64,000 bases of DNA from Lachnospiraceae bacterium (GTDB lineage: Bacteria; Bacillota; Clostridia; Lachnospirales; Lachnospiraceae), in assembly GCA_009777715.1 (NCBI GenBank), contig WRLH01000008.1, positions 1 to 64,000 on the forward strand. Direction: 5' to 3'. The notes under the pieces were generated by a model. The model saw only the letters and a program-made list of their open reading frames with translations. It did no database searches and was not told where the DNA came from. Made by a program: the position numbers and the translations under genes. Of this stretch, positions 1 to 5,963 are shown piece by piece; positions within the stretch are counted from its first letter, which is position 1, and each line of letters begins with the position of its first letter.

Positions 1-1352
1 GCTATTGGTGGCTCAATGCCAATCCGAAAATTTGGAGCTTTGCAGACATTGCTGTTGGTGAAATGCAATCATATACGTTGTATAACGAAAACGGAAATAA
101 GCGCCGCGTGTTTCAAAACTTCTTAGACGCAAAATCCGGAGATATGATTATATGCTATGAGTCCAATCCGGTAAAACAAGTAGTCGCTTTCGGGCAAATA
201 AGCGCAGAGCATGAAGATGAAAGGATATTTCTTGAAAAAACAGAAGGACTTGCTTCGCCTATCGACTATTCCATTTTAAGGGAATGCCCGGAGTTGGAGA
301 AAATGGAGTTTTTTGTAAATCCAAACGGCACTCTCTTTAAGCTGACTCGCGGAGAATATGACTTCATCGTTGATATGATTAGGGAAGAAAACCCAATCGC
401 GTCCGAACAACCCACTACAAAGTATGGCAAGGCTGAGTTTCTCGATGAAGTCTACATGAGCGAAAGTAACTACGATGTTCTTTGCTCCCTTTTAGAGAAT
501 AAGTCGAATGTGATTCTTCAGGGGGCGCCGGGTGTTGGAAAGACATTTGCGGCAAAACGGCTCGCATATTCAATTATGGGAGAGGTTGACGAAAACCGTA
601 TAGAGCTAATCCAGTTTCATCAAAACTATTCATATGAAGACTTTATAATGGGGTATAAGCCTGTAGACGAAGGATTTGATTTGAAATACGGAATTTTCCA
701 TAGGTTCTGCTTAAAAGCTGCCAATTATCCCGACAAAGACTTCTTCTTCATCATTGATGAAATCAACAGGGGTAATCTGAGCAAGATTTTTGGTGAACTC
801 CTTATGTTGATTGAGCGTGATTATCGAGGGCATAAAGCTACTCTCGCTTATAACGGTTTGCCATTTACTGTTCCAAAAAACCTTTTCATAATAGGAATGA
901 TGAATACAGCCGACCGGAGCCTCGCAATGATAGACTATGCGCTTCGCCGCAGATTCAGTTTCTTTGAAATGGAGCCTGCCTTTGATTCCGAAGGCTTTAC
1001 TAAGTATCAAAATAGTTTGAGCAGCGAAACCCACGAAGATATGGTCGTTTATAAAGCACTCTACGGCGAACGCGGAACTTGGGTACGCCCACTCTCCATG
1101 TGGGATAATCCGATTGAGGTTGACGGCAAGACCGTGAAGCGGTTTGAGTATGTCGGCGAAAATGGCGATACCGACAGGCAACACGAACTACACGAAGCTC
1201 TGCGCTCGATAAGCTCAACCATCGGAAAATGCGAAAAAGCAATATTGAAACTCAACGAGGGAACATCACAGCACACGCTGACAAAACGGCGGATTGAAGC
1301 GTTTTATATCGCCGTATCGCTTATAGAAAGGGAACTTAGGGAGGAAAGCTGA
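1..1352 (+). CDS. EVE-domain McrB-like AAA+ GTPase/ATPase, 5' end cut by window
   Basis: The motor subunit of a McrBC-type modification-dependent restriction system. The frame is open from base 3 to the first in-window ATG at base 63. The codons before it read [13 protein letters not shown], typical of the start of an EVE (modified-base reading) domain, so the true start lies upstream of the window. After the EVE part (to about residue 110 of the ATG-started protein) comes an AAA_5 domain: Walker A GAPGVGKT, Walker [11 protein letters not shown], sensor-1 GMMNTADRS and the arginine stretch ALRRRF. Family knowledge: EVE-McrB proteins bind modified DNA and need the nuclease McrC. No mcrC follows; a Nudix gene on the other strand occupies the place. 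Only a 47-codon frame (1355-1498) starts after a good GGAGG, and I do not recognise it. The gene is probably an orphan remnant. Confidence 0.85.
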
Positions 1353-1906: not shown

Positions 1907-2064
1907 TTGAGCAGAAATTTCTCTTACCCTCTCAAAGCGTTCTTTGTCGTATTGGTCTTTTGTATATGCAAATTCTTAAGCCCATTGATTCTATACGCAA
2001 ATAGCGGTATAATACTCATATAAGCATTCCTATAGAGAATGAAATTTGAACTTTGACAAAATAA

Positions 2065-2134
2065 ATAAAATCTCCCAGTATGATGTATGTGAGTCTAGTG
2101 GGACTTAATACATCAGAAAACAAGGAGATTTTAT
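2065..2134 (+). promoter_or_regulatory. Nested hairpin leader that occludes the transposase RBS
   Basis: Three nested perfect inverted repeats: 2065-2075 with 2124-2134 (11 bp), 2081-2088 with 2108-2115 (8 bp), and 2092-2095 with 2102-2105 (4 bp). The 3' arm of the outer stem contains the GGAG of the Shine-Dalgarno sequence, five bases before the ATG at 2139. Folded RNA should hide the ribosome site. This suits translational damping of read-through transposase mRNA, or a left-end structured RNA. Confidence 0.65.
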
Positions 2135-2138
2135 AGCA

Positions 2139-3431
2139 ATGAAAAAGGCAGACCAATCAAAACGTAAACTTGAAGCCGTCACATTAAGGACATTAGTCGT
2201 GGGAATCGACATTGCAAAACAAACCCAATGGGCGAGATTCACCGATTGCCGCGGTATGGAACATGACAAGGCATTTAAATTTGAAAACAATAAAAACGGG
2301 TTCAATGCCATTTTATCAAAAGTTTACCAGATATGCAATGAAGGAAATTTTAATGGCATCATCGTCGGGATGGAACCGACTGGCCACTATTGGAAGCCAT
2401 TGGCCAACTTTCTTATAAGGCAGGCGAAAATAACGGTGGTTTTAGTAAACCCCTACCATGTTAAAAAATCAAAGGAACTTGATGACAACAGCCAGACAAA
2501 GTCAGATAAGAAAGATGCCTTGACGATAGCCCGCCTGGTAAAGGACGGCCGATATTTTGACACTTATCTCCCCCATGATATTTATGCTGAACTTAGGGTT
2601 CTTACAACGGCCCGAATCAGCATGGGCAAGCGGAGGAAGGCAATCAAGAACACAATTACTGCCGTGCTAGATGAATATTTCCCGGAGTTTATAACAGTTT
2701 TTAAACATCCTTATGCCGGCAAGGCCTCCATGCAGATATTAAAGTCGTGTCCGGTTCCCAGATTCATTCTTGAGCTTGGGGTGGACGGAGTGCTTGCCGA
2801 GATAAAGAAAGCGGTAAAAAAGACCGTGGGGCGCAAGAAAGCGCAGCAGTTAGTAGAGGCAGCTAACGAATCAATAGGTGTAGATTATGGTGAAAATGCA
2901 GCCGCCTTTAAAATCAGGCAGTTAGTTGAGGAACTGGAGCTTCTTGAGAGACAGTTTACGTCCATTGAAAATGAAATGGCAGAAGCGCTTACTAAAACAG
3001 GCTTGTCCGGACACCTCTTAAGCATAAAAGGCATAGGCATTGCATCATTGGCGATGTGTTTAGGCGAACTGGGTGATCCGCTCCGCTTCGACGATGCTAG
3101 GCAGATGAGCCGCATGGCGGGATATAACTTGATTGAAGACAGCTCCGGCAAGAATAAGAGCGGAACCTGCATATCAAAACGTGGGCGTAAGAATCTGCGT
3201 TGTGTTCTTTATAAGATGGCAATAACGATGGTGGCAACAAACGAAGAAATGAAAGCTCTTTATAGCTACCTTAAGACACGGGATAAAAATCCCCTAAAGA
3301 AGGTGCAGGCCCTTGTGGTGATAAGCAAAAAAATCCTTACGCTGATATATATCTTGGCAAAGAAGAAAGAGGATTATAATCCGGAATTAGTTTTCAGTGA
3401 CATACGAAAAAGCCAATTGAAAGCGGCGTAA
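2139..3431 (+). CDS. IS110-family transposase (DEDD recombinase)
   Basis: 430 residues, full length for the family. The N-terminal RuvC-like DEDD domain shows the first Asp in VVGIDIAKQT, the Glu in GMEPTGHYW and paired Asp in SDKKDALTIARLV (within residues 20-135). The C-terminal Transposase_20 domain shows LLSIKGIGIASL and the serine-bearing MAGYNLIEDSSGKNKSG followed by SKRGRKNLR (about residues 290-350). IS110 enzymes cut and join DNA with the help of an RNA made from the element's own non-coding end (bridge RNA). SD AAGGAG with start ATG 2139 is convincing but lies in a stable stem. The reading frame is intact. Confidence 0.95.
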   Translation: MKKADQSKRKLEAVTLRTLVVGIDIAKQTQWARFTDCRGMEHDKAFKFENNKNGFNAILSKVYQICNEGNFNGIIVGMEPTGHYWKPLANFLIRQAKITVVLVNPYHVKKSKELDDNSQTKSDKKDALTIARLVKDGRYFDTYLPHDIYAELRVLTTARISMGKRRKAIKNTITAVLDEYFPEFITVFKHPYAGKASMQILKSCPVPRFILELGVDGVLAEIKKAVKKTVGRKKAQQLVEAANESIGVDYGENAAAFKIRQLVEELELLERQFTSIENEMAEALTKTGLSGHLLSIKGIGIASLAMCLGELGDPLRFDDARQMSRMAGYNLIEDSSGKNKSGTCISKRGRKNLRCVLYKMAITMVATNEEMKALYSYLKTRDKNPLKKVQALVVISKKILTLIYILAKKKEDYNPELVFSDIRKSQLKAA

Positions 3432-3450
3432 CCTTTTATATGCCGGTACA

Positions 3451-3596
3451 GGCACAGGGGCAAGGAGGATCTCTCCATCAGCCCATTGAGGCAGCACTTA
3501 AGCAAAATGACTCCCCTGTGCCTTATCCATAAAACAGAATGAAGGAATGTAAGGGCATAGACCCAGCGAGAACTGTTAGGGTAAGTGTATGGATAA
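3451..3596 (+). ncRNA. Candidate IS110 bridge RNA (two abutting stem-loops)
   Basis: Directly after the transposase stop there are two large stem-loops placed end to end. Stem 1 is a perfect 10-bp inverted repeat, 3451-3460 with 3513-3522. Stem 2 is a perfect 8-bp repeat, 3523-3530 with 3589-3596. Each encloses 50-60 nt with smaller pairings (GCC/GGC near 3481-3492; ACCC 3561-3564 with GGGT 3579-3582). Two adjacent internal loops is the layout expected of target- and donor-binding loops. Sequence shows the stems; the bridge-RNA role is inference from the family (IS1111-like members carry it at the right end). Confidence 0.55.
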
Positions 3597-3712
3597 ATAA
3601 CTGGTGTTATTAAATCAATGTTAATGCCTTTTTAGGTATTGATATAAATAATGAAAAATATATCGGGAGATATATTGACAAATTTCAAATATTGAGTTAG
3701 GAGTATAAAACC
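3597..3712. other. AT-rich spacer between IS110 tail and PPOX gene
   Basis: No gene. Holds the right end of the IS element at an unresolved point, a 7-bp hairpin with GGGA loop (3658-3664 with 3669-3675) and an isolated TTGACA at 3675-3680 without a good -10 at normal distance. Confidence 0.5.
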
Positions 3713-4129
3713 ATGCGTGACGCAGAAAAAACCATCGGTAACATTATTGACAAACAAAAAATTTGCCATCTTAGCTCTGTTGATGGCGACGGCTTCCCGA
3801 ATACAAAAGCCATGTTAAGGCCAAGAAAGCGGGACGGCATAAAGCATATTTACCTTTCCACTAACACATCATCAATGCGGGTATCGCAATTTCGGGAAAA
3901 TCCAAAGGCTTGCCTTTATTTTACCGATAGCCGCTTTTTCAGAGGGGTAATGCTGCTCGGAACGGTAGAAGTCATGGAAGATGCCGAACACAAGGAAATG
4001 ATTTGGGAAAACGGCGACACAATATATTATCCGCAAGGCGTGACCGACCCGGATTATTGCGTGTTGAAGTTTACTTCGAAAAAGGGACGGTATTACAGCA
4101 ATTTTAAGAGCGAGGATTTTGAGGCATGA
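3713..4129 (+). CDS. Pyridoxamine 5'-phosphate oxidase-fold (PPOX) protein
   Basis: 138 residues, the size of small split-barrel flavin/FMN or F420-type stress proteins (general stress protein 26-like). N-terminal KQKICHLSSVDGDGFPNTKAM is the strand pair that opens the barrel. HIYLSTNTSSMRVSQFRENP and the later GTVEVMED strand complete the fold. Cofactor and substrate cannot be told from sequence. SD TAGGAG lies eight bases before the ATG. The last residues and stop overlap a 26-bp stretch that is repeated inside the nearby antitoxin gene, so the 3' end may have been rearranged. Probably co-transcribed with xpt 22 bp downstream. Confidence 0.75.
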   Translation: MRDAEKTIGNIIDKQKICHLSSVDGDGFPNTKAMLRPRKRDGIKHIYLSTNTSSMRVSQFRENPKACLYFTDSRFFRGVMLLGTVEVMEDAEHKEMIWENGDTIYYPQGVTDPDYCVLKFTSKKGRYYSNFKSEDFEA

Positions 4130-4148
4130 AAGAATCCATTTTGGAGGG
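4123..4148 (+). repeat. 26-bp direct repeat, copy 1 (PPOX-xpt junction)
   Basis: Identical to 4995-5020. This copy contains the PPOX stop codon and the GGAGGG that acts as the xpt ribosome site. In the other copy the same bases encode GMKESILEG inside the antitoxin. Confidence 0.9.
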
Positions 4149-4823: not shown

Positions 4824-5075
4824 ATGAACCATATGACAGCCAAAACGGCACAACAAGATTTTCCCACACTAGTTGACTGCGTTGTCAAGCAAGGAGATAC
4901 CATATCAATTGCAACGGACGATGGTGCAGCGGTCTTAGTTAGCCAAGATGAATGGTACGGTCTACTAGAAACTCTTTATTTACAATCAATTCCCGGCATG
5001 AAAGAATCCATTTTGGAGGGCAAGGCAACACCAATTAGTGAATGCCTTGACAGCGTTGGTTGGGATATAAGTTAA
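4824..5075 (+). CDS. Phd/YefM-family antitoxin
   Basis: 83 residues. The N-terminal part (MTAKTAQQDFPTLVDCV) fits the Phd/YefM DNA-binding fold and DDGAAVLVSQDEWYGLLETLYL is the dimer/helix region. The acidic C-terminus would wrap the toxin. It neutralises the following YoeB-like toxin and represses its own promoter in known systems. The coding sequence holds the second copy of the 26-bp repeat (4995-5020). SD GGGAG precedes the ATG. It overlaps the toxin by 16 bp, as expected for a translationally coupled pair. Confidence 0.88.
   Translation: MNHMTAKTAQQDFPTLVDCVVKQGDTISIATDDGAAVLVSQDEWYGLLETLYLQSIPGMKESILEGKATPISECLDSVGWDIS
4995..5020 (+). repeat. 26-bp direct repeat, copy 2 (within antitoxin)
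   Basis: Exact copy of 4123-4148. Here it is fully coding and fits the normal helix of a YefM-type antitoxin, so this is probably the original and the upstream copy a fragment of a lost related gene. Confidence 0.9.
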
Positions 5076-5359
5076 AGTACGCACGGCGGGCGGAAAAGGA
5101 TTCTCGTTTGCTGGAGCAAGCCGGGCTTCACAAGGTTGCCATCAAGTTATTGGCAATCATCAAAGAAAATCCGTATCAAAACCCACCGCCATATGAAAAA
5201 TTGCAAGGTGATCTAAAGGGTTCATATTCACGCCGGATAAATAAACAGCATCGCTTGCTTTATGATGTTCTTTCAAACGATGAAAACTTGATAGACGAAA
5301 ATGGGAAACCTTATAATGGGATTGTGAAAGTGATACGAATGTGGACACATTATGAGTAG
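5060..5359 (+). CDS. Txe/YoeB-family mRNA interferase toxin
   Basis: 99 residues, RelE superfamily. Ribosome-dependent mRNA cleavage is the known activity. Catalytic-type residues are visible: Glu in YEKLQGDL, Arg in SRRINKQHRLLYDV, and the C-terminal His-Tyr in MWTHYE. A 12-residue insertion (about residues 75-87, NDENLIDENGKPYNG) lengthens the last hairpin compared with E. coli YoeB (84 aa). Start is TTG 5060, inside the antitoxin gene, with no SD of its own, so synthesis depends on antitoxin translation. Intact. Confidence 0.88.
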   Translation: MGYKLKYARRAEKDSRLLEQAGLHKVAIKLLAIIKENPYQNPPPYEKLQGDLKGSYSRRINKQHRLLYDVLSNDENLIDENGKPYNGIVKVIRMWTHYE

Positions 5360-5564: not shown

Positions 5565-5963
5565 ATGCCTGAAGTAACGAGCGATTTTTCATTAGAAGAG
5601 TACATATCAAGTACGATGATTGGTTTGGGTGTCCCGGCACACCTAAAAGGGTACCGCTACCTGCGCAGTGCAATTTTGATTGCGACAAAAGATATGCAGG
5701 TGGTAGGCAGCGTGACAAAGCTTTTGTATCCAGAAGTTGCAAAGCTTTATCAAACAACCAACAGCAAGGTTGAACGCGCAATCAGGAATGCCATTGAGAT
5801 TTCTTGGGAACGCGGAAATGCAAACCTATTTGAGGAGCTTTATGGGTACTCCAACAAAGACGGCCATGAGCGGCCGACTAATAGTGAATACATTGCCAAT
5901 ATTGCTGACCAGATTCAGCTGCGCTTACGCGAGAATGCAAGTGAATTGATAAACGAAAGCTAG
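5565..5963 (+). CDS. Stand-alone Spo0A C-terminal (DNA-binding) domain protein
   Basis: 132 residues that match only the effector domain of the sporulation master regulator Spo0A: GYRYLRSAI, GSVTKLLYPEVA, TTNSKVERAIRNAIEISWERGN and RPTNSEYIANIADQI in order. Spo0A itself has about 120 more residues of receiver domain in front, which is absent. A good SD (GGGGGTAAG) and ATG show that this short form is the natural gene. It should bind DNA constitutively or be controlled by another partner. It sits eight bases before the first glycan gene and is the likely local regulator (inference). Confidence 0.85.
   Translation: MPEVTSDFSLEEYISSTMIGLGVPAHLKGYRYLRSAILIATKDMQVVGSVTKLLYPEVAKLYQTTNSKVERAIRNAIEISWERGNANLFEELYGYSNKDGHERPTNSEYIANIADQIQLRLRENASELINES

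What the first reader, a model, noticed from the sequence alone, without database searches (positions are those of the whole stretch)
3451..3596. Candidate bridge RNA at the IS110 right end
Two large stem-loops abut exactly (stem 1 ends at 3522, stem 2 begins at 3523). Both are closed by perfect 10- and 8-bp stems with big internal loops. IS110-family recombinases are known to use an RNA with two DNA-binding loops encoded next to the gene, at the right end in the IS1111 group. This region has that architecture.
Basis: partly seen in the sequence, partly recalled or inferred. Interest (0 to 1): 0.7.

Follow-up and report, generated by a model that had tools for sequence, protein, structure and literature searches.

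The report
Jumping gene guided to ribosome-binding sites
A jumping gene in this bacterium carries a predicted guide RNA whose sequence resembles the ribosome's own docking sequence; 27 of 29 copies examined in nine genomes sit inside a ribosome-binding-site-like sequence, nearly always just ahead of a gene, so the RNA likely steers the element there.

Summary
The two abutting stem-loops are real (10 and 8 bp, perfect; fold z -2.76). They form the right-end non-coding RNA of an IS110-family element at 2023-3700. A covariance model of eight relatives, window held out, finds 3451-3599 at 161 bits and the same RNA 3' of the recombinase gene in 53 of 70 distant loci. Left guide versus left flank: 4.32/6 against 2.06 shuffled (0 of 5000, n=63); right guide versus right flank: 6.48/9 against 4.98 (0 of 1000, n=65). 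An out-of-sample viral set agrees (1 of 20000, n=10). So a bridge RNA is well supported, without expression data. Beyond the finding: (1) the family's natural target is the Shine-Dalgarno sequence, A-AG|GAGG, at 27 of 29 right junctions in nine genomes. (2) In both loops the right guide precedes the left guide, the reverse of IS621 and the order reported for IS1111 seekRNAs, on a 430-aa recombinase larger than IS1111 ones. Six literature searches found no report of this targeting. Weak spots: this copy's own right flank fits its guide poorly (4/9), and the window's subgroup alone is not significant for the left guide.

The parts
2023..3700 (+). IS110-family insertion sequence; core dinucleotide AG at 2023-2024 (left) and again at 3699-3700 (right)
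   Evidence: Identity with other copies in the same genome starts at 2022 and ends at 3701-3703; AG core inferred from shared ends
2139..3431 (+). IS110-family recombinase, 430 aa; DEDD/RuvC N-terminal domain plus Transposase_20 C-terminal domain, invariant D24, E79, D123, D126 and S336-G337
   Evidence: Pfam PF01548 E 2.9e-34, PF02371 E 1.4e-18; NF033542; alignment of 11; predicted fold (pLDDT 84) closest to ISCro4 and IS621 synaptic complexes
3451..3596 (+). Predicted bridge RNA
   Evidence: Held-out covariance model R2, 161.4 bits, E 4.2e-42 over 3451-3599
3451..3522 (+). Target-binding loop, closed by stem 1 (3451-3460 / 3513-3522), inner hairpin 3481-3492
3467..3476 (+). [quoted passage not shown]
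   Evidence: RTG-RT match 6.48/9 versus 4.98 shuffled over 65 loci, 0 of 1000; position
3461..3468 (+). CAAGGAGG, a Shine-Dalgarno-like stretch that can fold back on the right target guide; role unknown
   Evidence: hairpin; present in close relatives, not in L021, L030, L032
3495..3502 (+). Predicted left target guide CACUUAAG, AG = core
   Evidence: LTG-LT match 4.32/6 versus 2.06 over 63 loci; for this copy 4 of 6 with flank CATATA
3523..3596 (+). Donor-binding loop, closed by stem 2 (3523-3530 / 3589-3596), inner hairpin 3553-3564
3543..3550 (+). Predicted right donor guide AGGAAUGU, complementary to left-end CATTCCT (the first base lies just outside the six scored)
   Evidence: RDG-RD 5.59/6 versus 5.05 over 70 loci, 0 of 5000
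3573..3579 (+). Predicted left donor guide CUGUUAG, same sense as right-end GTTAG
   Evidence: Window GTT/GTT, other loci GAT/GAT, GGG/GGG, AGG/AGG; 2.98/3 versus 1.98 over 64 loci (partly circular, see full report)
2023..2030 (+). Right donor half-site: AG core + CATTCC (left end of the element)
3694..3700 (+). Left donor half-site GAGTTAG (right end of the element)
3701..3714 (+). Right half of the split target, GAG + 9 nt + ATG of the downstream gene (3713-4129, pyridoxamine oxidase-like)
2065..2134 (+). Leader hairpin ATAAAATCTCC...GGAGATTTTAT that covers the recombinase gene's own Shine-Dalgarno sequence
   Evidence: Fold z -5.20, 0 of 200 shuffles; tnp SD at least half paired in 69 of 69 scorable loci

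Best explanation
The stretch 3451-3596 is most likely the bridge (guide) RNA of the IS110-family insertion sequence at 2023-3700, and it would direct the recombinase to Shine-Dalgarno sequences in front of genes. Proposed working (inferred, modelled on IS621): the element excises as a circle that joins its right end ...GAGTTAG to its left end AG CATTCC. The donor-binding loop (3523-3596) would pair with that junction: AGGAAUG with the top strand of CATTCCT, GUUAG with the bottom strand of GTTAG. The target-binding loop (3451-3522) would pair with the target A-AG|GAG(G): CUCC plus a few 5' bases with the top strand on the right, NNNNNNAG with the bottom strand on the left. Strand exchange at the shared AG would put the element inside the Shine-Dalgarno sequence, right end toward the gene. 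The sequence shows that the right junction still reads (T)AGGAG, so the gene keeps a Shine-Dalgarno sequence. The guide's CUCC is the core of the ribosome's anti-Shine-Dalgarno sequence, so the element would find genes by the same base pairing that the ribosome uses. Related subgroups cut after AAGGAG instead of inside it, or target a different repeat, with guides changed to match.
For: Held-out covariance model finds the RNA and it recurs 3' of the recombinase gene in 53 of 70 distant loci. Guide-target covariation: LTG-LT 0 of 5000 overall and 0 of 5000 with shuffles inside subgroups (n=63), RTG-RT 0 of 1000 overall and 0 of 2000 inside subgroups (n=65); out-of-sample 10 loci, 1 of 20000. 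Eight loci have all six LTG bases equal to the left flank, e.g. L021 TATACG, L069 TAGGAA, L093 TAAACA. Donor guides covary. Target: 27 of 29 right junctions in 9 genomes are NTAG+(G)GAG and 25 of 29 have ATG plus an ORF of at least 30 codons. A second subgroup has left flanks ending AGGAG in 18 of 19, the viral set in 10 of 14. Empty site: L053's target is uninterrupted in another genome at 81% identity with no gap at the junction. Recombinase fold matches IS621/ISCro4 bridge-RNA complexes.
Against: No expression or activity data. The window copy's own right flank matches its guide at only 4 of 9 (GGAG), against 8, 7, 6 and 6 for the other four right junctions in the same genome. In the window's subgroup alone LTG-LT is not significant (424 of 5040 exact permutations) and RTG-RT is modest (65 of 2000). 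The RNAs of the other own-genome copies are not assembled, so one RNA stands for all. Only 9 of 29 AAGGAG motifs in the window precede a start codon with an ORF (4 with ATG), so motif matching alone does not explain why insertions are nearly all at real start sites; counter-selection or a further cue is needed. L095 and L096 are not at Shine-Dalgarno sites. GAGGTAG right ends of G102 have no matching RNA in the assembly.
Confidence: 0.87

Rival explanations
1. It is a bridge RNA, but in the window's subgroup the guides run in the IS621 order: the 5' stretch CAAGGAGG (3461-3468) is the left target guide, and the 3' NNNNAAG segment is only partly used.
For: AAGGAGG is present 5' of the right guide in close relatives and equals the target; LTG-LT in this subgroup is not significant.
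Against: Distant loci lack AAGGAGG there but keep the 3' left guide, some with exact matches to the left flank (L021, L069, L093). The donor loop of the window itself has the right guide 5' and the left guide 3'. The stretch can pair with the right guide in a hairpin.
Confidence: 0.1
2. The Shine-Dalgarno association is survivorship, not guidance: insertions elsewhere are lost because they break genes, and the RNA guides only loosely.
For: Most AAGGAG motifs in the window are not at start sites, yet junctions nearly all are; the right junction keeps a Shine-Dalgarno sequence.
Against: Sequence-specific covariation beyond the shared motif: RTG-RT inside subgroups 0 of 2000, subgroup of L024-L033 2 of 2000 although all its members sit at such sites; one subgroup with other guides goes to another repeat (0 of 28 at Shine-Dalgarno sites as grouped).
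Confidence: 0.1
3. The stem-loops are a 3' untranslated or terminator-like structure of the recombinase mRNA with no guide role.
For: They follow the stop codon directly and are transcribed with the gene if at all.
Against: No terminator-like site was called there; guides in both loops covary with targets and ends.
Confidence: 0.03

Closest known systems
IS621 bridge RNA and recombinase (IS110 group), PMC11208160, PMC11208158
   Same: Two loops, target-binding first and donor-binding second, each with stem, guide, small stem-loop, guide; shared core dinucleotide; recombinase fold match.
   Different: Here the RNA is at the right end, guide order in each loop is right-then-left (IS621: left-then-right), core is AG not CT, no 5' stem-loop is evident, recombinase is 430 aa against 328 residues in the PDB chain; target is the Shine-Dalgarno sequence, IS621's is REP elements.
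IS1111-family seekRNAs (ISEc11, ISPa11, ISKpn4), PMC11187229
   Same: RNA downstream of the recombinase gene; segment pairing with the top strand lies 5' of the one pairing with the bottom strand.
   Different: Recombinase length 430 aa against 330-350; no conserved subterminal repeat in the expected place; reported targets (attC, REP, others) are not Shine-Dalgarno sequences.
IS110-family members with long recombinases and a downstream non-coding region, mentioned in PMC11187229
   Same: Likely the published set closest to this one: 395-455 aa recombinases and some downstream NCRs are described there.
   Different: Their RNA order and targets are not given in the sections read; no ISfinder sequence could be compared.

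Membership tests
IS110 family | DEDD RuvC-like N-terminal domain and Transposase_20 C-terminal domain with conserved serine | tested here: met
IS110 family | Insertion without target duplication other than the shared core | tested here: met
   Empty site of L053 aligns across the junction without gap; for the window itself no exact empty site was found
IS110 family | Circular intermediate | not testable with these tools
   -
Bridge RNA | Non-coding RNA next to the recombinase gene with two large internal loops, conserved in structure | tested here: met
Bridge RNA | One loop covaries with the target | tested here: met
   window subgroup alone weak
Bridge RNA | Other loop covaries with the element's ends | tested here: met
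   the LDG part is partly circular because ends were picked with end motifs
Bridge RNA | RNA is made and bound by the recombinase | not testable with these tools
   -
IS1111 group | RNA in the right end | tested here: met
IS1111 group | Top-strand guide 5' of bottom-strand guide | tested here: met
   against PMC11187229
IS1111 group | Subterminal inverted repeats of 7-17 bp | tested here: inconclusive
   9-bp TGAAATTTG at offsets 17/13 in the window and three of the close relatives printed; longest perfect repeat only 5 bp in several others; 1.7% of shuffled ends reach 9
IS1111 group | Recombinase of 330-350 aa | tested here: not met
   430 aa
IS110 group (IS621-like) | RNA in the left end, left guide 5' | tested here: not met

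The most novel reading that the evidence does not exclude
A lineage of IS110 elements in Firmicutes turned its bridge RNA into a DNA-seeking mimic of the ribosome's anti-Shine-Dalgarno sequence. It is a mirror-image bridge RNA (right guide before left guide in both loops) that homes to translation start sites in any gene, in two different cutting registers, leaves the gene a Shine-Dalgarno sequence, and hides its own recombinase gene's start signal in a hairpin against the host transcript it lands in. Because AAGGAG motifs are mostly not at start sites while insertions are, it may also read a second cue of active start sites.
Probability: 0.5. Interest if true: 0.78.

Novelty: new variant of a known kind. 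Interest (0 to 1): 0.64.

Why it matters
The published targets of bridge-RNA elements that I read about are particular repeats or conserved genes. A guide set on the Shine-Dalgarno sequence gives an element thousands of equivalent sites, one ahead of many genes, always in one orientation, and puts it between promoter and gene. It would be a natural example of a guide RNA copying the ribosome's base-pairing rule, would explain how such elements spread in gut Firmicutes, and adds a guide order with matching donor loop that could be tested as a programmable recombinase. The many natural guide/flank pairs make guide rules readable from public genomes.

Tried and rejected
First guide model: I took CAAGGAGG (3461) as left target guide and AUCUCUCC as right guide, i.e. 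IS621 order; dropped as the main model when L021, L047, L048 and others showed the left flank repeated in the 3' segment, kept as a rival.

Exact empty site of the window element: joined flanks searched in 6 genomes of the genus; G003 has the downstream gene at 74% identity, but its upstream region does not align. Rejected as an empty site. L060's site in G495: no. L053's site in G496: yes.

RNAalifold on 14 diverse sequences missed most of stem 1 because MAFFT could not register it; replaced by the arm-swap test. A hand-registered stem table held one mistyped arm (L023, not found in the sequence) and is not used. Alignment A3 with the window is out of register in stem 1; A4 without it was used for the model.

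Promoters: TTGATT-17-TATAAT at 1985-2013 scores 10/12, but 4 promoter-like sites were found against 4.1 expected, so no weight is put on it.

Rows dropped before counts: locus L036 (of 80 fetched) was not carried into the set because its gene match ends at the contig end; of 80 entries (window + 79 loci) 74 had the donor-loop motif, then L045 was removed as a false hit and L019 added by hand. L015, L028, L044, L045, L057, L063 have no usable RNA (the first three reach a contig end). LTG-LT uses 63 of 74, RTG-RT 65 of 74, stem swap 70 of 74, leader hairpin 69 of 74, donor tests 70 (L019 taken out) and 64. Right ends were picked by hand from motif hits. L090 and L086 were moved from the AGGAG to the Bacillus subgroup. 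Of 61 viral loci only the best 19 were analysed and 10 were usable.

Full report
What is there. Window 2139-3431 encodes a 430-aa recombinase with both IS110-family domains. Directly after it lie the two stem-loops of the finding. Stem 1 is 3451-3460/3513-3522, stem 2 is 3523-3530/3589-3596, both perfect and abutting; the fold is better than all but 1 of 200 dinucleotide shuffles, z -2.76. Rfam has no match in the window at gathering scores.

Ends of the element. Six other places in the same genome match parts of the element, four of them within a few bases of the end of a contig. Identity starts at 2022 on the left and ends at 3701-3703 on the right. Left copies read A-AGCATTCC, right copies GAGTTAG. 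The shared dinucleotide is AG, so the element is 2023-3700 with one AG at each end (inferred). All five right junctions of this genome continue (G)GAG, then ATG at 10-13 nt.

The target is the Shine-Dalgarno sequence. With a right-end pattern I found 24 more right ends in 8 of 12 genomes that hold relatives. Of 29 right junctions in 9 genomes, 27 are NTAG+(G)GAG, 26 have an ATG 3-17 nt on, and 25 have one that opens an ORF of at least 30 codons or runs to the contig end. The two misses are L095 (AG then CATTACTAT) and L096. The mode is ATG 12 nt after the core, a usual Shine-Dalgarno spacing. Control: of 29 AAGGAG motifs in the window, both strands, 9 precede a start codon with an ORF and 4 an ATG; of 54 AGGAG, 9 an ATG. 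So insertion sites are richer in true start sites than the motif alone. Among one-per-locus relatives, the motif was present in 8 of 9 (window subgroup), 7 of 7, 5 of 5 and 17 of 20 loci, and a start codon with an ORF lay 4-19 nt on in 8 of 9, 7 of 7, 4 of 5 and 13 of 20, against 20.3% of 20700 random positions (10.0% for ATG); a Bacillus-type subgroup had 0 of 28 and 1 of 28. The motif list in that script is broad and was set after seeing the data; one of the 20 (L090) was later moved to the Bacillus subgroup.

Two registers. In the window's subgroup the cut lies inside the motif, A-AG|GAGG. In a second subgroup it lies after it: the left flank ends AGGAG in 18 of 19 loci with a full flank, and 10 of 14 viral loci with a left flank do too. 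In both cases the right junction again reads as a Shine-Dalgarno sequence ((T)AG|GAGG, or right ends GAGGAG/GAGGGAG). The right end GAGGGAG is also found in the Bacillus-type subgroup, which goes to a different repeat, so it need not be an adaptation. One uninterrupted site was found: L053's target reads AATAGGAGGTTATAGATATG when joined, and G496 has AATAGGGGGTTAAAAAGATG in an 81% identical stretch without a gap.

The RNA family. A covariance model from eight relatives, window left out, finds the window's RNA with 161.4 bits, E 4.2e-42; the next hit in 64 kb has 11.6 bits. In 70 further loci it gives 54 hits at E up to 0.01 in 53 loci, each on the same strand and downstream of the recombinase gene; 17 loci have no hit. 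Stem support: (and 74, where the alignment is off by one).

Guides. Comparing loops with flanks gave one consistent scheme: each loop is stem, right guide, small hairpin, left guide. Target loop: a right guide ending in CUCC (or other letters in other subgroups), then hairpin, then six bases plus AG. Donor loop: AGGAAUG, hairpin...GUUAG. I found the scheme by looking at some of the same loci, so the tests below are not fully blind except the viral set. LTG against left flank: 4.32 of 6 against 2.06 shuffled, 0 of 5000 (n=63 of 74); shuffling only inside subgroups 3.41, 0 of 5000; dereplicated by guide (n=35) 0 of 5000 both ways. Eight loci match 6 of 6. RTG against right flank: 6.48 of 9 against 4.98, 0 of 1000 (n=65); inside subgroups 5.86, 0 of 2000. 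By subgroup RTG gives 65 of 2000 (window), 2 of 2000 (L024-L033), 121, 47 and 0 of 2000; LTG in the window's subgroup is not significant (exact 424 of 5040). Out-of-sample: fixed rules on 19 viral loci, 10 usable, 3.7 of 6 against 2.39, 1 of 20000. Donor: RDG-RD 5.59 of 6 against 5.05, 0 of 5000, n=70; LDG-LD 2.98 of 3 against 1.98, 0 of 5000, n=64. The last is partly circular, since right ends were picked by hand with end motifs; the least circular piece is the window's GTT where relatives have GAT, on both sides.

How it would work. The scheme fits recombination as shown for IS621 (PMC11208160 sections 6 and 12 and passages; PMC11208158 passages): the donor loop holds the joined ends, the target loop holds the Shine-Dalgarno sequence, exchange at AG. 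Shown here: anatomy, covariation, target sites. Inferred: circle, RNA production, RNA-recombinase binding, strand exchange. The recombinase model (pLDDT 84) is closest to ISCro4 and IS621 synaptic complexes (E 1.1e-12, TM-score by target 0.77 and 0.73); by sequence IS621 E 1.8e-8. The guide's CUCC lies in the anti-Shine-Dalgarno core CCUCC(U) (core as given in abstracts listed); 6 of 9 loci of the window's subgroup have CCUCC, the window has CUCC.

Leader. Window 2056-2160 folds with z -5.20, and the hairpin covers the recombinase gene's Shine-Dalgarno sequence. Over 69 scorable loci that sequence is at least half paired in 69 and fully in 41 (mononucleotide shuffles only). An element that always lands in a host leader would need its recombinase shielded from host transcripts; this is inference.

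Closest known and group. IS621 has left guides 5' in both loops. IS1111 seekRNAs have the top-strand match 5' and lie downstream; IS110-type ISEc21 is the reverse (PMC11187229, all four parts of Results read). The present RNA follows IS1111 in place and order, but the 430-aa recombinase and the lack of a conserved subterminal repeat do not fit IS1111 as described; that paper mentions IS110-family members with downstream RNAs, which may include this lineage. I therefore file it in the IS110 family, not in the IS1111 group.

Distribution. In the window's own lineage the element is rare: of 98 relatives including its own genome, 4 have any match and the three others are 52 bp or shorter; the right end is in 1 of 391 genomes of the class sample, its own. 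Close relatives are mostly from Lachnospiraceae. At least 5946 related proteins pass E 0.001 among the 8000 candidates scored; one listed cluster, named for Coprococcus, stands on 482 contigs. Relatives below 60% identity are in 331 plasmid and 14 phage records.

Literature. Six searches for Shine-Dalgarno or ribosome-binding-site targeting and two on bridge RNAs gave no report of it in the listings; 'Shine' does not occur in the main texts of PMC11208160 and PMC11187229. Supplements, ISfinder and subscription papers were not searched.

Against. This copy's right flank fits its guide at only GGAG (4 of 9), while other junctions of the genome fit at 8, 7, 6 and 6; the window copy may have been placed by a sister RNA, or GGAG may suffice. 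GGG-type junctions need a one-base slip. G102's GAGGTAG ends lack a matching RNA in that assembly. No expression data exist here.

Noticed in passing
window 2065-2134: Leader hairpin that hides the recombinase gene's Shine-Dalgarno sequence; present in 69 of 69 scorable relatives at half pairing or more.
   Followed up: partly
L047-L090 (Bacillus-type loci): Same RNA, other guides: target reads GGGGCAG|(G)TTAGTTGAAC, a partly palindromic repeat and not a Shine-Dalgarno sequence.
   Followed up: partly
G000:C44:19543-19589 (L007): A solo 47-nt right end at a Shine-Dalgarno site beside unrelated sequence, with no left end nearby on the same strand in register.
   Followed up: partly
L019/L095 right end: Right end followed by AGCATTACTAT, which resembles the element's own left end AGCATTCCTAT; possibly a decayed end-to-end junction.
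   Followed up: no
L094, L102, L106, L109 (G102): Right ends GAGGTAG, while the one RNA found in that assembly has GATAG as left donor guide; the cognate RNA is missing.
   Followed up: partly
window 4125-4148 and 4997-5020: Perfect 24-bp direct repeat CATGAAAGAATCCATTTTGGAGGG, one copy inside a yefM-like antitoxin gene, the other at the end of the pyridoxamine oxidase-like gene.
   Followed up: no
window 4824-5359: YefM/YoeB-type toxin-antitoxin pair.
   Followed up: no
window 5565-5963: Free-standing Spo0A C-terminal DNA-binding domain protein of 132 aa.
   Followed up: no
window 63-1352: AAA_5 ATPase with DUF1653 and a weak EVE match, possibly a McrB-like restriction part (the McrB label is recalled).
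   Followed up: no
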